From positions 1 to 64,000 of the forward strand of contig NZ_FMXA01000004.1 in NCBI RefSeq assembly GCF_900103425.1: DNA of 64,000 nucleotides, in the 5' to 3' direction. The notes beneath the pieces are model-generated. The model was not told where the DNA came from, did no database searches, and was given only the letters and a program-made list of their open reading frames with translations. Source of the DNA: Dialister histaminiformans (GTDB taxonomy: Bacteria > Bacillota > Negativicutes > Veillonellales > Dialisteraceae). Position numbers and translations under genes: made by a program. Position 1 is the stretch's first letter. Each line of letters begins with the position of its first letter. Positions 52,207 to 64,000 of this stretch are shown here, in pieces.

Positions 52207-53517
52207 ATGAGCACAACTAAAAAAATGAGCGTTACGCAGTTAATTATCATTACTGCGGTAAACATGATGGGATCCGGTATCGTTATGCTGCCGGCAAAGC
52301 TGGCACAGGTAGGCGGATTATCCATAATTTCCTGGCTGGTTACGGCAGTAGGTTCCATGTTACTCGCGTACGCATTTGCAAAATGTGGAATGTATTCACA
52401 GAAGAGCGGCGGTATGAATGGATATGCTGAGTACACGTTTGGTAAAGCAGGGAACTTCCTCTGCGGATATTCTTACGGCATCTCTATAATCATTGCCAAT
52501 GTGGCAATTGCTACTTCGGCAGTGGGCTATGGCGCAACTTTCCTGGGCGCAGAGCTTACACCGGGGATGACCTGCCTGGCTACCATTGCCGTTCTCTGGA
52601 TAGCCACTCTTCCTAATTTCGGAGGTCCTGGAGTAACAGGCAGACTGAGCTCCATTACAGTTTGGGGAGTAATTATTCCGATTCTGGCTATGTCTACAGC
52701 GGGATGGTTCTATTTTTCCGGAGATATGTATGTAGCTAACTGGAATGTCCACAATCTGCCATTTGGTGAAGCAGCAACTAATGCGATTACCATGACACTC
52801 TGGTCTTTCCTGGGATTGGAATCCGCCTGCGCCAATGCAGATGCGGTAGATAATCCGGAAAAATCGGTTCCAACTGCGGTGCTGTGCGCTACCGCCCTCT
52901 GCGCGGTTATCTATATTGCCTCCACCAATGTACTGTTTGGCATGCTGCCGGCTGCGGAAATTGAACAGAGCTCCGCGCCATTCGGACTGGCCTTTGCCCA
53001 CATGTTTGGTCCTCTGGCAGGCCGGGTGGTTATGGGGATGATGACCATTGCCTGCATGGGATGCCTCATGGGGTGGCAGTTTACCCTTCCTAATATTTTC
53101 AAATCCATGGCCCGTGAAGGATTCATGCCATCCGCCTTCGCCTATACTAATCGGTTCGGTGCACCGGCAAAAGGCATGCTGATACTGACATTGATTCAGA
53201 CCGCTATGGCATTTATGGCCATCAGCCCGAATCTTAATCAGCAGTTTGAAATCCTTGTCAATCTGGCAACCATCGCTAATCTGATATCCTATATTCTCTG
53301 TATGTCCGCAGTAAAGAACATACTGATTACAGCCAACAAGCAGAAAGAAATGGCATTCTCACTCTTTGCCGCTGCGGTTGGCGGCGTATACAGCCTGTAT
53401 GCGGCGTATGCGTCTGGTTTTGAGGCCATGACTTATGGTTCACTGGTCGTATTTGCAGGAATGCTCTTCTATGGGTACATTTCTTCCCGATATGATCTGG
53501 CAACCAGTAAGGCCTGA
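52207..53517 (+). CDS. PotE-like amino acid/amine antiporter, copy 1
   Basis: 436 residues from ATG 52207 (GGGAG upstream). APC-superfamily exchanger with 12 expected helices. The helix-1 substrate motif is kept (NMMGSGIVMLP), as are counterparts of E. coli PotE Cys62 (AKCGMYS), Trp201/Glu207 (TLWSFLGLESA), Trp292 and Lys301 (GWQFTLPNIFK). The PotE Tyr308 position is Phe (REGFMP). It probably swaps an amino acid for its decarboxylation product across the membrane, but the exact pair cannot be assigned. It has its own promoter and leader, apart from the decarboxylase. Confidence 0.88.
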   Translation: MSTTKKMSVTQLIIITAVNMMGSGIVMLPAKLAQVGGLSIISWLVTAVGSMLLAYAFAKCGMYSQKSGGMNGYAEYTFGKAGNFLCGYSYGISIIIANVAIATSAVGYGATFLGAELTPGMTCLATIAVLWIATLPNFGGPGVTGRLSSITVWGVIIPILAMSTAGWFYFSGDMYVANWNVHNLPFGEAATNAITMTLWSFLGLESACANADAVDNPEKSVPTAVLCATALCAVIYIASTNVLFGMLPAAEIEQSSAPFGLAFAHMFGPLAGRVVMGMMTIACMGCLMGWQFTLPNIFKSMAREGFMPSAFAYTNRFGAPAKGMLILTLIQTAMAFMAISPNLNQQFEILVNLATIANLISYILCMSAVKNILITANKQKEMAFSLFAAAVGGVYSLYAAYASGFEAMTYGSLVVFAGMLFYGYISSRYDLATSKA

Positions 53518-53553
53518 CATATAGCCGGATATCTTTCTGGCATTCCCCAAAAT

Positions 53554-53594
53554 AAAATGGAGTATGATACAAACACCATACTCCATTTTATTTT
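53554..53594. terminator. bidirectional terminator after antiporter 1
   Basis: AAAATGGAGTATG pairs perfectly with CATACTCCATTTT; A and T tracts on both sides. Confidence 0.88.
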
Positions 53595-53607
53595 GCATAA
53601 TCCTTAC

Positions 53608-53647
53608 AATAAAACCCCGTATGAACCAATCATACGGGGTTTTATTG
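53608..53647. terminator. second back-to-back terminator
   Basis: TAAAACCCCGTATGA pairs with TCATACGGGGTTTTA over 15 bp. With the one before it, it separates antiporter 1 from the convergent gene at 53651. Confidence 0.88.
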
Positions 53648-53650
53648 TCT

Positions 53651-53959
53651 TTATTCTTCCCAGTCAAACCAGGTCAGTGCCTTTTCCAGATCAAAGAACG
53701 ATTTCCCGTCCCACAGGATATCTTCAGTCAGATGGTTCAGGCAGTCTTCCGGATCATCGGATTCATAACTGTAAACCATACCCAGAAAATCAGCAAAAGG
53801 CTCTTTTGTATAATGATACTTCTCAACACTCACCGTATACGTGCCCCGCATAGGATTATGGCGAAGTCTGGAGAAACGATATACGTACCCTTTGTACCGT
53901 ACACAGGCGCTGTCATCATACAGAGAATAAATGAAATCATCCACATTACCATTTTTCAT
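53651..53959 (-). CDS. small cytoplasmic protein of unknown function
   Basis: 102 residues from the ATG at 53959 (AAGGAGT upstream); no signal or membrane segment. It is rich in aromatic and acidic residues (DDFIYSLYDDSA, SFFDLEKALTWFDWEE) and has a YRFSRLRHNPMRGTYTV core. The gene is real by its ribosome site and terminator. No family recognised. It is convergent with antiporter 1. Confidence 0.7.
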   Translation of the reverse strand: MKNGNVDDFIYSLYDDSACVRYKGYVYRFSRLRHNPMRGTYTVSVEKYHYTKEPFADFLGMVYSYESDDPEDCLNHLTEDILWDGKSFFDLEKALTWFDWEE

Positions 53960-54722
53960 AGACGGATACTCCTTAAGGAATCATTTATTTCTCATTATAA
54001 GGAGGAGGGCGTGAAGAGTCAAAAGGGACCAGGTTAAGGTGGCGCAGGGTAAAAAACAATAATTTACAAATAATTAATAAAATTAATTATTTGTAAATTA
54101 AAATAAACTAAATATTAAAAAACGAACAATAAAATGTTTGGTTATTAATACAAAACAAAAACAAAACACAATAATATCAATATATTTATGTGGAATATAT
54201 TATAGCTTAAATATCCAAATAACTGCAAATTGAAGACAAATGAAGGCTTAAAGTACAGTAAAAAAGAACATCATCACATACATAGAAAAAGATAACTAGA
54301 TAGCTGTGAAGAAGGATATGTAGTTAACAATTTGAAAATTGGAAAAAGCGTGATATTGAGAAAGTACATGATATAAAAACTTGTTTTGATGATGAAATGA
54401 TTGAGAAAAAAGTGTAGCACAAAAAAATGTAAAAAACAGCATAATATAAGGATATTTGTAAAGAGACTGCTATTTGTAAATACAGAAAACCTCGGATAAA
54501 CTACAGATGTCATGTGGGAGGGCATACAAGTCGAAATGTGACAGTCAACCTTAAAATAAGATTTGAAACAAGCCATTTTAGTTATTTACTAAATACGAGG
54601 TTGACAATAAGACTTCTAATTATTGAACGTGTTAGTTGGAAGATAATGACGATTTGTAGAGCAAGATTCCTGATCAGCATGATTCGATTTTTTTAGTTTT
54701 TTGCAGATAAGGAGTAAACAAA
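53960..54722 (+). other. very AT-rich 760-bp gap before the speF antiporter
   Basis: No gene of convincing length. Base composition shifts to strongly A+T from about 54030 to 54500. A TTGACA at 54601-54606 has no good -10. A 16-codon frame (54646-54696, MTICRARFLISMIRFF) ends 26 bp before the antiporter ATG and is the only leader-peptide candidate; its ribosome site is weak. It may hold the speF promoter and control region. Confidence 0.4.
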
Positions 54723-56072
54723 ATGCAAAAGGTAAAAAAGATGGGGGTTTGGGAATTAACCCTTCTGGTACTCGTCAACATGATGGGGTCCGGTATTATT
54801 CTTCTGCCGACAAAGCTTGCTTCTGTTGGTACAATTTCAGTTCTTAGCTGGTTTATTACCGGTGGTGCAGTAGCATGTCTTGCATATGCATTTGCAAAAT
54901 GCGGTATGTTTAGCCGTCGTGGTGGTGGCATGGGTGGTTACGCTGAATACTCGTTTGGTAAGGCTGGTAACTTCATGACGAATTATACCTATTCCATTAC
55001 GGCTTTACTTGCTGACGTAGCTATTGCGCTGACAGCAGTTGCTTATGCATTACAGGTTCTTGGTGTTGAATCTAATGCAACAACCATTTGTGTTGGTACT
55101 TTGATTGCCATCTGGGCAGCTACAGCATTGAGTCTTGGTGGTCCAAAATCTGTTGGTAGAATTACTTCTTTCACAGTTCTTGGTGTAGTTGTTCCAGTAT
55201 TAGGTATTTCTCTAATTGGTTGGTTCTGGTTCAGTCCATCGTTGTGGATTAGTCAATGGAATCCGCATAATCTTCCATTCTTTGATGCAGTAAGCTCTTC
55301 TATCGCATTAACACTGTGGGCATTTGCAGGATTTGAATCTGCGGTATCTAACTCTGACGCTGTTGAAAATCCGGAAAAGAATGTTCCAATCGCAGTTATG
55401 GCAGCTACTCTTGGTGCAGCAGCAGTTTACGTTGTTTCCACTAATGTTATTCAGGGGATTGTTCCAAGTGCAGAACTTGTTAATTCAAATGCTCCATTTG
55501 GCGTAGCATTTGCACATATGTTCAGCCCGGCAGTAGGACAGGTCATTAATGCGTTCTTCGTACTGAGTTGTTTTGGTTCCCTTATGGCATGTCAGTTTAC
55601 AGCTGTACAGTGTCTTAAATCTGGTGCAGATGCTGGTTATTTCCCGGCTATTTTTGCAAAGGAAACTAAGCGTGGACTTCCGCTGATGGATATGATTATC
55701 GTTGCAATTCTTCAGTCTATCTTTGTAATTATGAGCGCAAGCCCAGAATTCTTCTCTCAGTTTGAAGCAGCAGTTGATTTGTCCGTAATGACAAACTTGA
55801 TTCCTTTCATCTTCTCCATGGGATCTATTCTGGTTATTCAGAAAGCAGCTACCGGAAAGACAGATTTTGTAACTAACATCTGTGCAGTAATCGGTTTGAT
55901 TTACAGCTTCTATGCTCTGTATGCATGTGGTACAGATGCTCTTGTATGGGGTTCTCTGGTTACATTCCTTGGTATTGCTTTGTATGGCATTGTATCCCCG
56001 AAGTACGATCTCGAAGCTGCTGTTGCTTATAACAAGAAGATTGATGCAGAAAAGGCAGCACAGAATCAGTAA
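54723..56072 (+). CDS. potE: putrescine/ornithine antiporter PotE-like, copy 2 (next to speF)
   Basis: 449 residues, 12 expected helices. GSG motif intact (NMMGSGIILLP), with matches to E. coli PotE Cys62 (AKCGMFS), Trp201 and Glu207 (TLWAFAGFESA), Lys301 and Tyr308 (LKSGADAGYFP). The Trp292 position is Cys: SLMACQFT against GWQFT in PotE. It is 83 bp ahead of the ornithine decarboxylase with no terminator between, so the pair is the expected exchange partner set: ornithine in, putrescine out. The order (transporter first) is the reverse of E. coli. A/T-rich upstream region. Confidence 0.9.
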   Translation: MQKVKKMGVWELTLLVLVNMMGSGIILLPTKLASVGTISVLSWFITGGAVACLAYAFAKCGMFSRRGGGMGGYAEYSFGKAGNFMTNYTYSITALLADVAIALTAVAYALQVLGVESNATTICVGTLIAIWAATALSLGGPKSVGRITSFTVLGVVVPVLGISLIGWFWFSPSLWISQWNPHNLPFFDAVSSSIALTLWAFAGFESAVSNSDAVENPEKNVPIAVMAATLGAAAVYVVSTNVIQGIVPSAELVNSNAPFGVAFAHMFSPAVGQVINAFFVLSCFGSLMACQFTAVQCLKSGADAGYFPAIFAKETKRGLPLMDMIIVAILQSIFVIMSASPEFFSQFEAAVDLSVMTNLIPFIFSMGSILVIQKAATGKTDFVTNICAVIGLIYSFYALYACGTDALVWGSLVTFLGIALYGIVSPKYDLEAAVAYNKKIDAEKAAQNQ

Positions 56073-56154
56073 TCTGGTGCTTTAGGTAATCCCTGGCTTA
56101 TTTTAAGCCGGATATAATATTCAGTTTTCAATATTTTTTGGGAGGAATTTATTA

Positions 56155-58377
56155 ATGAATTTCTTTAAAGTAGGTTATAGTCCATTAGCAGAACCGTATT
56201 TCAACACCATCGGTGTTCGTCAGAAAGTTTGTCTTGATGATGCAGATCTTACCAACATTGGTGCTGCAGTAATCACTGACCAGGAATTGGAATATGTTGA
56301 TAAGGTATACAACACTGGTTTTGAAACTCCTATTTTCCTCGTAAATACTAAGCATGAAGAACTTCCGGAAGAAGTTCTTGGTAAGATTAACCATGTTATT
56401 GATGGAGATCCAAGCACAATTTCTAAAGGACTCTATGACCGTGGGATTGAAGAAGCAGTAGTTGCATTTGATAATAAGGTAACTCCACCTTTCCTCAAGA
56501 CTATGATTAAGCATGTAGAAAATGGTACTTTTGAATATTCCTGCCCTGGTCATCATGGTGGTAATTTCTTCAGAAGAACACCAACTGGCGCTAAGTTTGT
56601 AGATTTCATGGGTGAAAACGTATTCCGTGGTGATTTGGGACATGGCGCAGCTCTGGATATGGGCGACCTTCTTTTGCACAATGGTGTGGCTAATGATGCA
56701 GAAGTTCTGGCCGCGAAGGTATATAACGCAGATAGAACATTCTTCGTATTGAATGGTACTTCCTGCTCCAACCACATTGTCTGCAGCGCATTACTTACAC
56801 CAGGCGACATCGTACTTTATGATCGCAACAATCACAAGTCCATTGACCATGGTGCTTGCATTCTGGCAGGGGCTACCCCTGTTTTCCTGGAAACGGTTCG
56901 TAATTCTGCCGGCTTAATTGGTGGTGTTCCGGCTAAATGCATCAACGAAGATTACATCCGTAATCTGGTAGCTGAAAAGGATCCAGTTAAGGCTAAGGCT
57001 AAGAGACCGATTCGTTTGGCTGTATTTGAAATGAGTACTTATGACGGCACAATCTATAATGCCCGCCAGGTTCTTGATAAGATTGGTCACCTCTGCGACT
57101 ATGTATTGTTTGACTGTGCATGGACTGGTTATGAACAGTTCATCGATATTATGAAGGACTCCAGCCCATTGCTGATGAAGCTTGGACCGGAAGATCCAGG
57201 TATCATTGTAACTCAGTCCGTTCATAAGCAGGGCGCAGGTTGGTCTTCTTCTTCCTGGATTCATAAGAAGGACAGTCATATTAAGGGACAGAAGCGTTAT
57301 TGCAATGATAGCGTATTCAACAATGCATATCTGCTTCATTACAATACATCCCCATTTATGCCGATGTGGGCAAGCATTGAAGTCAATGCAAGAATGCATG
57401 AAGGCAAACAGGGTAAGATGATGTGGAAGAAGGCTCTGTGTGATATTATTGAAGCTCGTAAGACTATCTTCAAGAGATGCCATTATCTGAAACCGTTTGT
57501 TCCGCCGGTAGTTCATGGAAAACCGTGGTGGGATGCTGATACAGAAACCATTGCAACTGATCTGGCTTACTGGAAGTTTAATCCGGAAGAAAACTGGCAT
57601 GGTTATAAGGGATATGACAAGGATCAGTATGTAGTTGATCCAATGAAGCTGCAGCTGATTACACCAGGTATTAACGTAGAAGATGACTCCTTTGAAGACT
57701 TTGGTATTAATGCGACTATCCTCTTCGCATTCCTGCGTGAAAACAACATTACCCCGGAAAAGACTTCTCTGTATAGCCTGCTCTTCCTGATTACTCCGGC
57801 AGAAACCAAGGTTAAGCTGGACAACCTTATTGCACAGCTCGTTCGCTTTGAAAAGCTGGTTGATGAAGATGCTCCACTGTATGAAGTGCTTCCAACCACT
57901 TACAAACAGTATTTTGCTCAGTACCGTGATTACTCTATCAGACAGCTGTGCCAGGAAATGCATGACTTCTACAAGAGCAATAATGTCAAGGAACTGCAGA
58001 AGGAACTGTTTATGAAGGATTATCTCCCAGAACAGGGCATCAGTGCTCAGCAGGCACATAATGCATTGGTTCGCAATGATGGTGAACTGGTTCCGCTGTC
58101 CCAGATTGAAGGCCGCATTGCTCTGGACGATGCGCTTCCATATCCGCCAGGAGTTGTTTGCGTAATGTCCGGTGAACGTTGGTCCAAGACAGCAACCAAG
58201 TATTTCCAGACTTTGGTAGATGGAATCAATGCGCTTCCAGGATTTGCTCCAGAAATTCAGGGCGTAGTTATGGGAACTGATAAGGATGGCAAAGCCATGG
58301 CTTCCGGTTACGTGCTGAAGAAGGAATTGGAAGATGAATATAAGGCTAAATATGTAACCGAACGAGTTAATGACTAA
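56155..58377 (+). CDS. speF: ornithine decarboxylase, inducible SpeF type
   Basis: 740 residues, close to the 732 of E. coli SpeF. PLP-dependent fold type I: N-terminal wing domain (1-110), the PLP domain with CPGHHGGNFFRR, VLNGTSCSNH, DRNNHKSIDHGA, the lysine that binds PLP in SVHKQGAG (about residue 358), KDSHIKGQ, and the C-terminal ALPYPPGVVCV loop. The motif run follows SpeF more closely than lysine (CadA) or arginine (AdiA) enzymes. It makes putrescine and uses up a proton, supporting acid tolerance. TGGGAGG precedes the ATG. A terminator follows at 58465. Confidence 0.93.
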   Translation: MNFFKVGYSPLAEPYFNTIGVRQKVCLDDADLTNIGAAVITDQELEYVDKVYNTGFETPIFLVNTKHEELPEEVLGKINHVIDGDPSTISKGLYDRGIEEAVVAFDNKVTPPFLKTMIKHVENGTFEYSCPGHHGGNFFRRTPTGAKFVDFMGENVFRGDLGHGAALDMGDLLLHNGVANDAEVLAAKVYNADRTFFVLNGTSCSNHIVCSALLTPGDIVLYDRNNHKSIDHGACILAGATPVFLETVRNSAGLIGGVPAKCINEDYIRNLVAEKDPVKAKAKRPIRLAVFEMSTYDGTIYNARQVLDKIGHLCDYVLFDCAWTGYEQFIDIMKDSSPLLMKLGPEDPGIIVTQSVHKQGAGWSSSSWIHKKDSHIKGQKRYCNDSVFNNAYLLHYNTSPFMPMWASIEVNARMHEGKQGKMMWKKALCDIIEARKTIFKRCHYLKPFVPPVVHGKPWWDADTETIATDLAYWKFNPEENWHGYKGYDKDQYVVDPMKLQLITPGINVEDDSFEDFGINATILFAFLRENNITPEKTSLYSLLFLITPAETKVKLDNLIAQLVRFEKLVDEDAPLYEVLPTTYKQYFAQYRDYSIRQLCQEMHDFYKSNNVKELQKELFMKDYLPEQGISAQQAHNALVRNDGELVPLSQIEGRIALDDALPYPPGVVCVMSGERWSKTATKYFQTLVDGINALPGFAPEIQGVVMGTDKDGKAMASGYVLKKELEDEYKAKYVTERVND

Positions 58378-58464
58378 TTATCATTGGATTGTAAAAGTTC
58401 CTATTTAGATATTCGTAATCATAAGGCGGAAAGCTTTTGAAAACGGAATATAGTGTGTGATTAG

Positions 58465-58508
58465 AAATGGAGTGAAGAACGCGTGAAACGATCTTCACTC
58501 CATTTTTT
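58465..58508 (+). terminator. terminator after speF, before antiporter 3
   Basis: AATGGAGTGAAGA and TCTTCACTCCATT pair over 13 bp with a 13-nt loop and TTTTTT. It lies 42 bp before the next ATG, so antiporter 3 would need a promoter of its own or read-through. Confidence 0.88.
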
Positions 58509-58549
58509 ATGTTCTTTTAGTTATTTCATGAAGGGGTGATGGTTATAAG

Positions 58550-59863
58550 ATGGATAACCACAAAAATAAGATGACTTTATTGCAGCTAACTGTTCTGACG
58601 GCTGTAAGTATGATGGGATCTGGTATTATTATGCTCCCAGCAAAACTGGGGCAACTGGGAAGTATATCCATATTATCCTGGCTGGTAACGGCTGTAGGGG
58701 CAATGTGTCTTGCTTATGCATTTGGGCAATGTGGTATGTACAGTCAGAAAAAAGGGGGAATGGGAGGTTATGCAGAATATGTTTTTGGTAAAAGCGGTAA
58801 TTTTATAGCCAATTTTACATATGGTATATCTGTGGTAATTGCGGACGCAGCGATGGCATTAGCTGCGGCTGGATATGGAGCTTCGCTTTTGGGGATAAAG
58901 CTGACATCCTTGGAGGCTGCAATCGGGACTGTTTTAATTTTATGGGCGACAACAATTCTTAATTTCAGAGGCCCGGCTGGTACCGGCAGGATTTCAAGTA
59001 TCACTATCTGGGGTGTTATATTGCCTTGTCTGTTTTTATCTACAGTTGGGTGGTTCTGGTTTTCTCCAGATATGTATTTTTCTAACTGGAATGTGCAGAA
59101 TCTTTCCCTGGGCGAAGCCGTTTCGCAGGCTATTACGATGACATTATGGGCCTTTCTTGGGTTAGAGACTGCCTGTGCGAATTCTGATGCGGTAGAAAAT
59201 CCGCATAAAACTGTTCCTAAAGCTATACTGGGAGGGGTACTTCTGGCGGCGGTATGCTATATAGTGACTACTAATGTGATGTTTGGAATGGTACCAGCTC
59301 AGGATCTGGCCAATAGTGAAGCTCCCTTTGGATATGTTTACTCTGTGTTGCTTGGGGGAACTGCAGGAAAAGTTGTAGTAGCCATGGTTTTGGTAAATGA
59401 TTTTGGTTCCCTTATTGGATGGCAGTTTACCGTAGGGAATGTATTTAAAGCGGCAGCGGATGCTAAAGAATTTCCACGTATCTTTGGCTGGATTAATTCC
59501 TATTCAGCACCTGTGGCAGGAATGATTATTATTACATCAATTCAGTCTATACTTGCTTTTATGACAGTAAGCCCATCATTAATCAAGCAGTATGAAATAT
59601 TGGTAGATTTGGCAGTGGTTACTAATGTCATACCGTATATTCTATCTATGTCTGCTTTGGATGTGTTGATGAAAATTGAAGCGAACATTTCCGGGAAGTC
59701 TTCGCGAGGATTGTCTGCTGTGGCGCTGATTGGTGCTATTTATAGTATTTATGCTTGCTATGCTGCAGGCGAACAGGCGATGACAGGGGGCGCCATTGTT
59801 ATTTTTGCTGGTTGGGTAATATATGGAAAAATTCAGAATCGGCAATATGTTTTGTTCAAATAA
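58550..59863 (+). CDS. PotE-like amino acid/amine antiporter, copy 3
   Basis: 437 residues, 12 expected helices. GSG motif kept (SMMGSGIIMLP), Cys (GQCGMYS), Trp/Glu (TLWAFLGLETA), Trp292 (IGWQFT) and Lys301 (VFKAAAD) counterparts present. The PotE Tyr308 position is Glu (DAKEFP), so ornithine recognition may differ. Ribosome site AAGGGG is 12 bases from the ATG. It is preceded by the speF terminator and followed by another terminator, so it is a single-gene unit or depends on read-through. Confidence 0.87.
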   Translation: MDNHKNKMTLLQLTVLTAVSMMGSGIIMLPAKLGQLGSISILSWLVTAVGAMCLAYAFGQCGMYSQKKGGMGGYAEYVFGKSGNFIANFTYGISVVIADAAMALAAAGYGASLLGIKLTSLEAAIGTVLILWATTILNFRGPAGTGRISSITIWGVILPCLFLSTVGWFWFSPDMYFSNWNVQNLSLGEAVSQAITMTLWAFLGLETACANSDAVENPHKTVPKAILGGVLLAAVCYIVTTNVMFGMVPAQDLANSEAPFGYVYSVLLGGTAGKVVVAMVLVNDFGSLIGWQFTVGNVFKAAADAKEFPRIFGWINSYSAPVAGMIIITSIQSILAFMTVSPSLIKQYEILVDLAVVTNVIPYILSMSALDVLMKIEANISGKSSRGLSAVALIGAIYSIYACYAAGEQAMTGGAIVIFAGWVIYGKIQNRQYVLFK

Positions 59864-59865
59864 AA

Positions 59866-59911
59866 GAAAAAGTACAGGAGGTCTTCTCAAGGGAAGGTCC
59901 TGTACTTTTTC
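59866..59911. terminator. bidirectional terminator between antiporter 3 and the TrpR-family gene
   Basis: AAAAAGTACAGGA pairs with TCCTGTACTTTTT, 13 bp perfect, with an inner TTC/GAA extension. Confidence 0.88.
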
Positions 59912-59926
59912 TTTAATCTTTAACGA

Positions 59927-60241
59927 TTAATCATTCTGGGTTTTGTAAATTATTCCGTGAAGTTTATTGAAGCGTTTAATTGCAAGTTTATATCCGCCAG
60001 TGCCGTATTGATAAGCTCTTTTGATTCGTGATATTGTGCCTGCACTAACGCCTGTTGATTCACGGATGGCGTCATAATTTTCGCCACGATCCAGTAAACG
60101 GGCAACTTCAAATCGCTGTCCCATTTCATGCAATTCATCGATAGTGCATAAATCCTGAAAAAAGCCATAAAATTCATCTTTTTCGCTTAAGGTTTTGATT
60201 GCATCAAATAAATGATCCAATTCAGCACATTTCATGTTCAT
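59927..60241 (-). CDS. TrpR/YerC-family DNA-binding regulator
   Basis: 104 residues from the ATG at 60241 (AGAGGGA 9 bases upstream). All-helical TrpR-like fold: the region FQDLCTIDELHEMGQRFEVARLL, then a helix-turn-helix NYDAIRESTGVSAGTISRIKRA, matching the YerC/YecD subgroup rather than enterobacterial TrpR. The ligand is unknown. The YerC group is often near purine or histidine genes. Here it is divergent from hisS and surrounded by antiporters, so it could control either. An inverted repeat lies in its promoter. Confidence 0.85.
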   Translation of the reverse strand: MNMKCAELDHLFDAIKTLSEKDEFYGFFQDLCTIDELHEMGQRFEVARLLDRGENYDAIRESTGVSAGTISRIKRAYQYGTGGYKLAIKRFNKLHGIIYKTQND

Positions 60242-60265
60242 CTTTTGAAGTCCCTCTCTTTTTTT

Positions 60266-60278
60266 ATAAACAGTTTAT
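60266..60278. promoter_or_regulatory. palindrome in the promoter of the TrpR-family gene
   Basis: ATAAAC-A-GTTTAT, a perfect 6-bp dyad, 25 bp before the regulator start and 340 bp before hisS. It may be an operator for autoregulation. The surrounding 60242-60511 is AT-rich and shows no gene or T-box. Confidence 0.35.
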
Positions 60279-60511
60279 GATAATTATTAGCTTATTAATT
60301 ATATAACAAAATGAATTGTTATAGAAGATACTTATTTTAAAGGGGCATACGATTAACGGAAGGACGAATTAAAAAATTAAAGTTATATCCATATAGAGAA
60401 TGAAATTAATCTAAAGTGATAAATAGTGAAGGTTGTTGGTTTTGCATTGACTGGGCTGAGAATAACAGTAAATATCCGGGAAATAGCTATTTAACTCTTT
60501 AAAGTATTAAC

Positions 60512-60541
60512 TTGACTACTAGGTAGAGAGTAATAGATAAT
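60512..60541 (+). promoter_or_regulatory. promoter for hisS
   Basis: TTGACT (60512-60517), 18 bp, GATAAT (60536-60541). The leader before the ATG is about 70 nt. Confidence 0.65.
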
Positions 60542-60547
60542 GTATAC

Positions 60548-60582
60548 AATTCAAATAAAAGAAATTTTCGTATATTTGAATT
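60548..60582 (+). promoter_or_regulatory. inverted repeat in the hisS leader
   Basis: AATTCAAATA (60548-60557) pairs with TATTTGAATT (60573-60582), 10 bp perfect with a 15-nt loop; ATTTTTG follows. It could be an operator at the transcription start or a weak attenuator. Confidence 0.4.
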
Positions 60583-60618
60583 ATTTTTGCTCAAGGATTA
60601 TTGAAAGGGAGGATCATT

Positions 60619-61878
60619 ATGCAAGCATTAAGAGGAACTCAGGATATTCTGCCGAGAGATATCTGGAAATGGAATTATGTAGAGAAAAAAATAAGAGAAT
60701 GGTGCAGGTTGTATCGTTTTGGCGAAATTCGTACCCCTATGTTTGAGGCAACCGAGTTGTTCCTCCGTGGGATTGGGGATACTACCGACGTTGTAACGAA
60801 AGAAATGTATACATTTAACGATCGTGGTGGTCGATCAATTACCCTTCGTCCAGAAAATACAGCGGCTGTTGTAAGATCCTTCCTTGAACATAAAGCGTAT
60901 GCCGATGATAATGTACATAAAGTGTTTTATATTGGATCCATGTTCAGATATGATCGTCCACAGGCAGGGCGATTCAGAGAATTTCACCAATTTGGTGTAG
61001 AAACATTAGGATCTTACTCTCCAGCTGCCGATGCTGAATGTATTGCGCTGGCGGTAGATTTCTTTCACTCGCTTGGACTCAAGGATTTAAAGCTTCTGAT
61101 TAATTCTATAGGCCATGTTGAATGTCGAAAAGCATATCGTGAGCGTTTGATAAAGTTCCTTGAACCAAAGAAAGATCAGTTGTGTGATGATTGTAAGGAA
61201 CGTTTATATAAGAATCCATTAAGAGTGCTCGATTGCAAGGAAGACGGATGCAAGGCCGCATCTGAAGGGGCTCCACAGATTACGGATTATCTTTGTGAGG
61301 ATTGCCACAATAAGTTTGAGGCCGTAAAGAAATATCTGACTGCACTGGGAATTCCTTACGAAATCGATTCTCGACTGGTGCGTGGTTTGGATTATTATAC
61401 GAATACAGCGTTTGAAATCCAGTATGCTCCATTGGGGGCGCAAAGCACAATTTGTGGTGGTGGTCGTTATGATGGACTCGTTGAAGAAATCGGTGGGCCG
61501 GCAACCCCAGGTATTGGGTTTGCCATCGGCTTGGAACGTCTAATTTTAGCACTGGAAAAACAGAACCTGTTACCGGCAGAACCTAAGGATGAGAATGTAT
61601 TTGTTGCGGTTATGGGAGAAGATGCTATGGCTGAAGGGCTTCGGATAGAAGACGGATTAAGAAGAAATGGAGTTCCGGCAGAAATTGATTTGCAGAACCG
61701 AAGCTTGAAGGGGCAGTTAAAGCAGGCTAACAAGCAGGGGGCTGCCTATGCAGTTATCATTGGAGAACAGGAGCTGAAACAGAAGCTGGGGGTTGTTCGT
61801 GATATGAATAACAATTCTCAGGAAAATGTAGCACTGGATGATATTGTAGAATATCTTAAGAAACAGATGCAAAGATAA
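60619..61878 (+). CDS. hisS: histidyl-tRNA synthetase
   Basis: 419 residues from ATG 60619 with GGGAGG 7 bases before. Class II synthetase: ALRGTQDILP, LRPENTAAVVRSF, GSMFRYDRPQAGRFREFHQFG (motif 2), the histidine-specific GLDYYTNTAFEI and GGGRYDGLVEEIG, and GFAIGLERLI (motif 3). An insert with paired Cys (CDDCKERLYK, DCKEDGCK) is common in bacterial HisRS. C-terminal anticodon-binding domain about 330-419. No aspS follows, the common Firmicutes neighbour. It is flanked by antiporters on both sides. A terminator follows. Confidence 0.97.
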   Translation: MQALRGTQDILPRDIWKWNYVEKKIREWCRLYRFGEIRTPMFEATELFLRGIGDTTDVVTKEMYTFNDRGGRSITLRPENTAAVVRSFLEHKAYADDNVHKVFYIGSMFRYDRPQAGRFREFHQFGVETLGSYSPAADAECIALAVDFFHSLGLKDLKLLINSIGHVECRKAYRERLIKFLEPKKDQLCDDCKERLYKNPLRVLDCKEDGCKAASEGAPQITDYLCEDCHNKFEAVKKYLTALGIPYEIDSRLVRGLDYYTNTAFEIQYAPLGAQSTICGGGRYDGLVEEIGGPATPGIGFAIGLERLILALEKQNLLPAEPKDENVFVAVMGEDAMAEGLRIEDGLRRNGVPAEIDLQNRSLKGQLKQANKQGAAYAVIIGEQELKQKLGVVRDMNNNSQENVALDDIVEYLKKQMQR

Positions 61879-61901
61879 GGACTTAGATAATCAAATTAAG
61901 A

Positions 61902-61944
61902 TAAAAAACCTTCTGATTGATATTATCAGCCGGAAGGTTTTTTA
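61902..61944 (+). terminator. terminator after hisS
   Basis: AAAAAACCTTC and GGAAGGTTTTTT pair; a TGAT/ATCAG extension adds stability. Confidence 0.85.
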
Positions 61945-62124
61945 TTTTCAGTAGTACTTTAGTTAAGTAAGAATACAAATAGTCATATAGTTAACGAGAC
62001 AGAAAAACTTATTTAATGACAAATAATTAATACTTTGTTATGATTTGTGTGATAATTTCTTGAAATTAGAGGCACGGAGTGGTGGCGCTCCTCTCGGGAC
62101 GGAAGAAAGATGAGGGAATTTTTT

Positions 62125-63423
62125 ATGCCACAGAATAACAAAGTAGGACTTATTCAGTTTACGATTTTAACTACGGTGAGCATGACGGATGGAATTATCA
62201 TGTTGCCAACTATGGTAGCTACCGTGGGAGCTATCTCTATTTATGCCTGGATTGAAACCATTATTTGTGTAATGATTCTTGCTTATGCATTTGCTAAATG
62301 TGGCGCCTATAGCAAGAAAAGTGGTGGACTTGGTGGATATGCGGAATATGCTTTCGGAAGATCAGGTAATTTTATAGCGAATTTTACATATGCTATTGCT
62401 CTTATGATAGCGAATGTAGGTATTGCTATTTCTGTTGTAGCGTATTCTAGTGCCTTTTTTGATGTTGAGCTAAGTCCGGTTGATGCAGCTTTTTTAGCAG
62501 GAGTGGTTATGATTATGACTACTGCAGCTAATTTTTGGGGAACCAGAATGACAGTTAAGCTGGGGTTTACGGCGATGATGTGCAAATTGATTCCGGCAGC
62601 AATTATGAGTATCTGCGGATTGTATTTTTTTGATCCTCAGATTTTTAATGCAGCATGGAATCCGCATCACTATACCGCGGTAAGGGCGATTGGTTCAGCT
62701 AATTCTTTTACGCTATGGGCTTTTTTAGGATTGGAGTCGGCATGTTCCAATATGGATCGAGTGGAAAATCCAAGAAAAAATGTTCCTGTTGCGGTAATAT
62801 CAGCTACAGCTATTATTGGGATTTTTTCAATTATATATACTACAGTTATTCAGGGAATAGTACCAAATTCAGTATTGTCGGTTTCTAATGCCCCGTTTGG
62901 TGATGCTTTTGCTTATATGTATGGGCCTGTAGCCGGTAGAATTGTCACAGCATTTATGATTTTTGGATGTGCGGGCGCATTAATTGCTTGGCAATTTACT
63001 TTAGGGGAATTGCTTCGTGAAGGTGCAGGTGAAGGATATTTTCCTGAAATTTTTGGGAAGGTGACCAAAGATGGCGTACCGGTAAAAGGCATGATTGTTA
63101 TGGTACTTATTCAGCTGATTATGATTTTTTTCACAATCAGCCCTACAATGGTTAAACAGTTTGATGTATTGATTCAGCTAGCTACGGTGGACAACTTGGT
63201 TCCTTACGTGTTGGCTATGGCCTCTCTGGATATTATGCAGAAAGAAGCTGGACATAATGAGCGCACGACCAGATTGGCTGCGGTTATAGGTGGGGCATAC
63301 AGTATGTATGCTACGTATCAGTGTGGCATGGATGCGGTTACGGCAGGTATGATGACGGTGCTTCTGGGGTATATGATTTATGGAGTATATGCTGGACAGA
63401 AACCCTATACAGGTCATTTATAA
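62125..63423 (+). CDS. PotE-like antiporter, copy 4, without the GSG motif
   Basis: 432 residues from ATG 62125 (GATGAGGG 6 bases upstream; ATG at 62110 lies within this site). Overall PotE-like, but helix 1 reads SMTDGIIMLP where the others have NMMGSGI: GSG is lost and one residue is missing. Cys (AKCGAYS), Trp/Glu (TLWAFLGLESA), Trp292 (IAWQFT) and Tyr308 (GYFP) positions are kept; Lys301 is Arg (LLREGAG). Sequence is AT-richer than its neighbours. An altered carboxylate-binding site suggests a different or uncoupled transport. Directly downstream of hisS with a terminator between. Confidence 0.87.
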   Translation: MPQNNKVGLIQFTILTTVSMTDGIIMLPTMVATVGAISIYAWIETIICVMILAYAFAKCGAYSKKSGGLGGYAEYAFGRSGNFIANFTYAIALMIANVGIAISVVAYSSAFFDVELSPVDAAFLAGVVMIMTTAANFWGTRMTVKLGFTAMMCKLIPAAIMSICGLYFFDPQIFNAAWNPHHYTAVRAIGSANSFTLWAFLGLESACSNMDRVENPRKNVPVAVISATAIIGIFSIIYTTVIQGIVPNSVLSVSNAPFGDAFAYMYGPVAGRIVTAFMIFGCAGALIAWQFTLGELLREGAGEGYFPEIFGKVTKDGVPVKGMIVMVLIQLIMIFFTISPTMVKQFDVLIQLATVDNLVPYVLAMASLDIMQKEAGHNERTTRLAAVIGGAYSMYATYQCGMDAVTAGMMTVLLGYMIYGVYAGQKPYTGHL

Positions 63424-63606
63424 TGGGGAACTTTCCTAAAAGATAGTGTCGTGAAGGTGATATGTTAATATGTTATTAAGGTGCAACATTTAGTAAGACC
63501 ATATAAAATAATTTGATATATTATGTAAATGCAAACAATTGGCATTTTCTGCTATTATGAGGGGCAGTATTTGACTGCACCATAATTAGCAGATAACGGG
63601 TTAAGA

Positions 63607-63638
63607 GAGGGAGACAGTTTATTTTGTCTCCCTTTTTT
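63607..63638 (+). terminator. intrinsic terminator 20 bp before antiporter 5
   Basis: AGGGAGACA and TGTCTCCCT pair over 9 bp with an 8-nt loop and six T's. It is 184 bp after the stop of copy 4 and 20 bp before the next start, so it may serve as a leader attenuator rather than only as the end of copy 4. Confidence 0.8.
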
Positions 63639-63658
63639 GTGTGAGAAGGTGAGATTCT

Positions 63659-64000
63659 ATGGGACATAGTAAAAATAAGGTCGGGGTTATTCAGTTTACT
63701 ATCCTGACTATTGTGAGCATGACGGATGGTATTATTATGATTCCGACCCTTGCTGCAGGAGTAGGAGCTATTTCGTTATATGCGTGGATTACTACGACAT
63801 TGGGAGCCGTGATTCTGGCGTATGCGTTTGCCAAGTGTGGGCGATTTAATAAAAAATCAGGAGGCCTTGGAGGATATGCAGAGTATGGTTTCGGTAAGGC
63901 GGGGAATTTTCTGGCCAATTATACTTATGCTATTTCACTGATGATAGCGAATGTAGGAATTGCTATTTCCGTCGTTTCCTATGCCAGCTCTTTTTTTAAT
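63659..64000 (+). CDS. PotE-like antiporter, copy 5, cut by the window end
   Basis: The first 114 codons of a gene that continues beyond the window (GAAGGTGAG before the ATG). It begins MGHSKNKVGVIQFTIL, then VSMTDGIIMIP in helix 1: the same loss of GSG as copy 4. AKCGRFNKKSGGLGGYAEY and the later NVGIAISVVSY also match copy 4 closely, so the two are recent duplicates. Everything after helix 3 is outside the window. Confidence 0.85.
   Translation, partial: MGHSKNKVGVIQFTILTIVSMTDGIIMIPTLAAGVGAISLYAWITTTLGAVILAYAFAKCGRFNKKSGGLGGYAEYGFGKAGNFLANYTYAISLMIANVGIAISVVSYASSFFN

What the first reader, a model, noticed from the sequence alone, without database searches (positions are those of the whole stretch)
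52207..64000. Five PotE-like antiporter genes with one decarboxylase, a TrpR-family regulator and hisS
Within 12 kb there are five homologous exchangers (52207, 54723, 58550, 62125, 63659) but only one decarboxylase (speF). Usual decarboxylation modules pair one enzyme with one exchanger. Most of the copies have their own terminators and leaders, so they look like separately controlled units for different substrates. Decarboxylases for the extra pairs may be encoded elsewhere or further right. This is the strongest candidate for an undescribed system in the window.
Basis: partly seen in the sequence, partly recalled or inferred. Interest (0 to 1): 0.68.

Follow-up and report, generated by a model that had tools for sequence, protein, structure and literature searches.

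The report
Candidate histidine decarboxylation cassette, ornithine-decarboxylase derived
A stretch of a gut bacterium's chromosome carries a block of five genes that looks like a reworked putrescine-making module now dedicated to histidine, possibly the missing histamine-making enzyme of a bacterium thought to live on histidine alone; beside it sit two altered transporters that probably carry amines.

Summary
In detail: five PotE-like exchangers, one SpeF-type decarboxylase, a TrpR-family regulator and hisS lie together; the fifth exchanger ends at 64972. The reading of five equivalent exchangers lacking decarboxylases does not hold. Three units sit side by side. (1) 52207 is a near copy of PotE-type genes elsewhere in the genome. 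(2) A cassette of about 7.9 kb (about 54.0-61.95 kb), absent at the same place in the sister species, holds exchanger 54723, the decarboxylase, exchanger 58550, a second HisR and a second hisS; relatives have one of each. Enzyme and both exchangers sit on very long branches; the enzyme keeps its catalytic residues but breaks 23 of 172 invariant ornithine-decarboxylase columns; 54723 has lost the substrate-floor Trp. The genome has no pyruvoyl and no group-II PLP histidine decarboxylase. I infer a histidine/histamine module whose enzyme would be a third, ODC-derived class of histidine decarboxylase. (3) 62125 and 63659 form a genus-only subtype in which the TM1 GSG motif is replaced by an Asp, predicted to carry amines only. 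The species is probably an Allisonella, perhaps A. histaminiformans (inferred). No activity has been measured.

The parts
52207..53517 (+). PotE-like exchanger T52207, native paralogue
   Evidence: 74% identical to two C15 exchangers of the same genome and one of the sister species; GC3 0.51 like gyrA 0.52; not part of the cassette
53606..53648 (+). terminator hairpin between T52207 and a convergent small ORF
   Evidence: 19-pair stem
53651..53959 (-). small ORF of unknown family that marks the left edge of the cassette
   Evidence: homologue adjacent to the TM1-variant exchanger in G001; no Pfam match
54723..56072 (+). exchanger T54723, candidate histidine/histamine antiporter
   Evidence: 83 bp before the decarboxylase; branch 0.96 vs median 0.081; AdiC-numbered N101D, I205A, W293C
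56155..58377 (+). SpeF-type decarboxylase, candidate histidine decarboxylase
   Evidence: ODC-derived, terminal branch 1.03-1.18, 23 of 172 invariant ODC columns changed, catalytic residues kept
58465..58505 (+). terminator between decarboxylase and T58550
   Evidence: perfect 12-base arms followed by T run
58550..59863 (+). exchanger T58550, second divergent exchanger of the cassette
   Evidence: branch 0.96; AdiC-numbered N101D and PotE C285D
59927..60241 (-). second HisR (TrpR family), HisR2
   Evidence: TIGR02531 102.9 bits; a second, canonical copy lies at C25:80376, relatives have one
60487..60506 (+). candidate HisR operator upstream of hisS2
   Evidence: TTTAN6TAAAG exact; tied for best score in the 80 kb of contig scanned; 3 mismatches to the full motif, chance not excluded
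60619..61878 (+). second histidyl-tRNA synthetase, HisRS2
   Evidence: TIGR00442 523 bits; housekeeping copy at C24:19216; ten relatives show a single full-length copy; 68.7% identical to copy 1, GLDYYT motif intact
62125..63423 (+). TM1-variant exchanger D1
   Evidence: SMT-DGIIM in place of NMMGSGIIM; 73% identical orthologue in G001; dN 0.19, dS 1.8
63659..64000 (+). TM1-variant exchanger D2 (ends at 64972 of the contig)
   Evidence: 65% identical to D1, same TM1

Best explanation
The core of the locus is a cassette (exchanger 54723, decarboxylase, exchanger 58550, HisR2, HisRS2; about 54.0-61.95 kb) for decarboxylation of histidine. Proposed working: histidine enters through an exchanger of the cassette, the PLP enzyme decarboxylates it using a cytoplasmic proton, and histamine leaves through the same exchanger, giving a proton-motive force; HisR2 senses histidine, and the spare HisRS keeps His-tRNA charged or reports on it while the pool is drained, as hisS is thought to do in lactic acid bacterial hdc clusters. 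The enzyme and exchangers descend from an ornithine/putrescine SpeF-PotE module and have changed substrate. Beside the cassette, the two TM1-variant exchangers (62125, 63659) carry an Asp where the amino acid carboxylate is normally held and would bind diamines or amines only. Shown: gene content, paralogy, insertion relative to the sister species by gene order, divergence, residue changes, absence of known HDC classes. Inferred: histidine as substrate, direction of transport, regulation, species name.
For: Two hisS and two hisR in this genome, one of each in relatives (G006, a 75% complete genome, showed no full hisS). In the sister species gyrA, the small ORF and the TM1-variant exchanger are neighbours with none of these genes between; the inserted genes have GC3 0.32-0.41 against 0.52 for gyrA and 0.51 for 52207. 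Decarboxylase branch 1.03 (median 0.083), still 1.12-1.18 after removal of other long rows; 23 of 172 columns invariant in all other ODCs changed, next worst 12, then 6; Lys358, Asp320, Trp323, His227, Ser355, His357 kept. Its partner exchanger diverged to the same degree (0.96) and branches near the exchangers partnered with the nearest ODCs, with pocket changes N101D, I205A, W293C and an intact TM1 motif; Trp293 is the floor that binds the side-chain cation in AdiC (PMC6199258). No pyruvoyl HDC in the genome, with positive controls ringing in two hdc plasmids; the only Pyridoxal_deC protein is a tyrosine decarboxylase. Known hdc clusters carry hisS (Tetragenococcus pHDC; PMC8465708), and this genome carries the parallel tdc-tyrP-nhaC-tyrS cluster in the order of pTDC-A.
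Against: No substrate was measured. The Glu proposed to hold the substrate's distal amine (LdcI Glu526) is kept (Glu535), which also fits ornithine. Clustering of changes near catalytic residues is weak (p about 0.025 at 8-12 residues, not significant closer in). No T-box and only one weak HisR-like site. Base-level insertion joints could not be resolved. D1 also has low GC3 (0.33) although its position is shared with the sister species, so composition alone does not prove transfer. Species identity is inferred.
Confidence: 0.6

Rival explanations
1. The cassette is an ordinary but fast-evolving ornithine/putrescine (or lysine/cadaverine) module, and hisR2 and hisS2 are passengers that happened to be inserted with it.
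For: Enzyme passes the PRK13578 ODC model (1018.6 bits, cut-off 794) and keeps Glu535; exchangers pass PotE models.
Against: The genome already has two other SpeF-type enzymes, both orthologous to enzymes of the sister species, and PotE exchangers near them; 23 invariant columns broken; exchanger lost Trp293; two histidine-specific paralogues in one insert are unlikely passengers.
Confidence: 0.25
2. The cassette decarboxylates some other amino acid, and HisRS2/HisR2 serve a separate purpose such as resistance to a histidine analogue or control of histidine uptake.
For: Divergence shows a changed pocket without naming the substrate.
Against: Decarboxylation clusters with their own tRNA synthetase match synthetase to substrate in the cases seen here: tdc/tyrS and hdc/hisS.
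Confidence: 0.12
3. The five exchangers are a redundant gene-dosage array with one substrate set, as the reader's refutation clause would have it.
For: All five score as PotE-like.
Against: Distinct lineages in the tree and different binding-site residues; purifying selection on D1 against its orthologue and against D2 (dN far below dS).
Confidence: 0.03

Closest known systems
hdc cluster of lactic acid bacteria (hdcC-hdcA-hdcB-hisS, Tetragenococcus halophilus pHDC)
   Same: Exchanger, decarboxylase and a dedicated hisS together
   Different: hdcA is pyruvoyl-type (PF02329) with maturation factor hdcB; here an OKR-fold PLP enzyme, no hdcB seen in the locus, PotE-type rather than HdcC-type exchangers, plus HisR2
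tdc-tyrP-nhaC-tyrS tyramine cluster (T. halophilus pTDC-A)
   Same: Same logic of synthetase with decarboxylase and exchanger; a complete copy is in this genome on contig 12
   Different: Tyrosine decarboxylase is group-II PLP; not part of the window locus
speF-potE ornithine/putrescine module (E. coli and Veillonellales)
   Same: Evolutionary source of enzyme and exchangers
   Different: Exchanger before enzyme, very long branches, altered pocket residues, histidine-sensing genes attached
AdiC / CadB / PotE exchangers, compared with TM1-variant proteins 62125 and 63659
   Same: AdiC fold (best PDB match 5j4n, TM 0.85); Trp202, Asn101, Glu208, Trp293 equivalents kept
   Different: TM1 Gly-Ser-Gly, which holds the substrate carboxylate in AdiC, is one residue shorter with an Asp; found in no genome outside the genus among those searched

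Membership tests
Pyruvoyl histidine decarboxylase (PF02329) system | PF02329 gene in the genome | tested here: not met
   0 matches in G000; controls ring in two hdc plasmids
Group-II PLP histidine decarboxylase (PF00282) | PF00282 protein other than tyrosine decarboxylase | tested here: not met
   Single protein hit is TIGR03811 tyrosine decarboxylase
Histidine decarboxylation cluster (functional kind) | hisS paralogue beside decarboxylase and exchanger | tested here: met
Histidine decarboxylation cluster (functional kind) | enzyme converts histidine to histamine | not testable with these tools
   needs an assay
SpeF-type ornithine decarboxylase | OKR_DC_1 fold and catalytic residues | tested here: met
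SpeF-type ornithine decarboxylase | columns invariant among ODCs; TIGR04301 cut-off 1310 bits | tested here: not met
   1040.9 bits, though relatives tested also stay below it at 1082-1303; 23 of 172 invariant columns changed
PotE antiporter (TIGR04299, cut-off 560) | score above cut-off | tested here: inconclusive
   met by 52207, 54723, 58550; not met by 62125 and 63659
APC basic amino acid/amine exchanger | TM1 GSG/GAG motif | tested here: not met
   not met by 62125, 63659 and the G001 orthologue; met by the other exchangers compared
HisR (TrpR-family histidine repressor) | TIGR02531 match and operator near histidine genes | tested here: inconclusive
   model met; one weak operator upstream of hisS2

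The most novel reading that the evidence does not exclude
A third class of histidine decarboxylase, recruited from a SpeF-type (OKR-fold) ornithine decarboxylase together with its exchanger, is the histamine-making enzyme of a histidine-dependent bacterium; alongside it, PotE-type carriers have become amine-only by placing an Asp in TM1, the solution also used by monoamine transporters of the same fold.
Probability: 0.45. Interest if true: 0.78.

Novelty: new variant of a known kind. Interest (0 to 1): 0.62.

Why it matters
[quoted passage not shown] If this cassette makes histamine, such surveys miss a producer group linked to rumen acidosis and laminitis, and the enzyme-exchanger pair shows how an ornithine module can be retargeted. 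The TM1-Asp carriers would be a natural test of how APC-fold carriers drop the amino acid carboxylate.

Tried and rejected
T-box or other riboswitch leaders: none at gathering score; sub-threshold trpB and His_leader hits at 53512-53651 sit on two adjacent terminator hairpins after 52207 and were rejected. HisR operators at each exchanger: only the hisS2 upstream site stood out. Genome-wide TTTAN6TAAAG count is not above its reversed control. Base-level insertion joints by comparison with G001: scores no better than shuffled; a 14-base shared word near both ends is AT-rich and not convincing. AlphaFold model of the decarboxylase was too poor to use (pLDDT 52). Alignment of PuuP/PlaP TM1 (which also has an Asp) with the TM1-variant exchangers was not resolved. 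A scan of 84,980 GTDB genomes with the TM1-variant alignment gave only GSG- or GAG-type relatives. No closer homologue of the decarboxylase than 59% was found in the class and phylum samples, and none in viral contigs. My first residue mapping onto CadA used a wrong offset and was redone.
Full report
Observation. The fifth exchanger ends at 64972 of the contig. Reading on to 90 kb shows a beta-eliminating lyase, an MFS transporter, Usp, translation factors and ribosomal genes, and no decarboxylase. The genome (1.70 Mb, 40 contigs, 99% complete) has nine PotE-like genes including a broken one, three OKR-type decarboxylases and one tyrosine decarboxylase cluster.

Three units, not five. In the one other genome held of the genus (G001) gyrA, a small ORF and one TM1-variant exchanger stand side by side. 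In this genome 52207 lies between gyrA and the small ORF, and 54723, the decarboxylase, 58550, hisR and hisS lie between the small ORF and 62125. 52207 has the composition of gyrA and is 74% identical to two exchangers on contig 15 and one in G001, so it looks like a native duplicate. The genes 54723 to hisS have GC3 0.32-0.41 against 0.52 for gyrA. The exact joints could not be fixed.

Histidine signature. This genome has two full hisS genes, the housekeeping one between a Fur-type gene and an aspS-like gene on contig 24 and the window copy; ten relatives have one (G006, 75% complete, showed none). It has two hisR genes, a canonical one on contig 25 and the divergent window copy; eleven relatives have one each. 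HisR is a histidine-responsive repressor in Firmicutes (PMC9413887), and that paper reports HisR paralogues apparently taken over for tyramine exchangers. A candidate HisR operator tied for best score in 80 kb of contig lies upstream of hisS2, but it has three mismatches to the full motif and the count in the window is at chance. In lactic acid bacteria the decarboxylation cluster carries the tRNA synthetase of its amino acid: hdcC-hdcA-hdcB-hisS on pHDC and tdc-permease-nhaC-tyrS on pTDC-A. The same genome carries the second type, complete and in the same order, on contig 12.

The enzyme. In two trees the window decarboxylase falls among SpeF-type ornithine decarboxylases with a terminal branch of 1.03-1.18 against a median of 0.05-0.08. 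It differs at 23 of 172 columns that are invariant in the other 35 ODCs; the next most deviant differs at 12, then 6. All PLP and catalytic residues that I could map are kept: Thr202, Ser203, His227, Asp320, Trp323, Ser355, His357, Lys358; Thr398 of LdcI, Ser in ODCs, is Asn397 here; Glu535 (LdcI Glu526, a proposed substrate contact, PMC5607190) is kept. Changes include FEMS for IQLG before TYDG, C and T around the Asp-x-Ala-Trp motif, NTSPFMPMW for STSPFYPLF, and S-L-Y for D-L-N after the PEK motif. They cluster only weakly near catalytic residues. So it is most likely an active decarboxylase with a changed pocket.

The exchangers. 54723 and 58550 have branches of 0.96 against a median of 0.081. 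54723 keeps the TM1 motif for the amino acid end but changes other parts of the pocket: AdiC-numbered N101D, I205A and W293C, the last being the aromatic floor that holds the side-chain cation of arginine in AdiC. 58550 shares N101D. 62125 and 63659 do the opposite: the side-chain end is kept, but the TM1 Gly-Ser-Gly is one residue shorter and carries an Asp (SMT-DGIIM). In the model of 62125 (mean pLDDT 75) this Asp is the first residue of the unwound TM1 segment, and the best PDB match is AdiC. PMC6199258 notes that in monoamine transporters of the same fold an Asp at the Gly27 position takes the place of the substrate carboxylate. The motif was found in two of 150 genomes of relatives, both of this genus, and in no relative among 84,980 GTDB genomes, from which near records may be left out. 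D1 and its G001 orthologue are under purifying selection (dN 0.19, dS 1.8). I read these two as amine carriers; this is inference.

No known histidine decarboxylase. PF02329 gives nothing in this genome while two hdc plasmids ring strongly; PF00282 gives only the tyrosine decarboxylase. Two major families are recognised in the literature (PMC8465708).

Species. The genome's family holds Dialister-like genomes; GTDB's Dialisteraceae comprises Dialister and Allisonella (PMC10408702), NCBI now places A. histaminiformans in Dialister, and 'Allisonella pneumosintes' is used in metagenome work (PMC10436198). A. histaminiformans is reported to use histidine as its only energy source (PMC9332062).

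Verdict. The mechanism is inferred and testable with one enzyme assay.

Noticed in passing
G000 contig 12, 67171-73271 (L019 5172-11272): Complete tdc-tyrP-nhaC-tyrS tyramine cluster in the order of the Tetragenococcus plasmid pTDC-A, in a Negativicutes genome; TyrP 51-58% identical to Gram-positive plasmid copies.
   Followed up: partly
G000 contig 15, 153735-156828 (L016 7736-10829): Tandem pair of near-identical PotE-like exchangers (93%) near an OKR decarboxylase whose own SpeF score is low (1082 bits); the sister species has one exchanger there.
   Followed up: partly
G000 contig 15, 167082-168523 (L017 4083-5524): PotE-like gene split into two ORFs, apparently broken; intact single-gene homologues exist in other genomes of the family.
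   Followed up: no
G001 C1:867414-868781 (L057 7415-8782): Solo PotE-like exchanger with AdiC-numbered N101D and a long branch (1.12), no decarboxylase next to it.
   Followed up: no
window 54060-54100: AT-rich inverted repeat with long perfect arms in the 0.7 kb non-coding stretch before exchanger 54723; role unknown.
   Followed up: no
window 59927-60241: Recognition helix of HisR2 differs from all HisR1 copies (SAGTISRIKRAY for STATISRVKRCL in most), so its operator may differ too.
   Followed up: no
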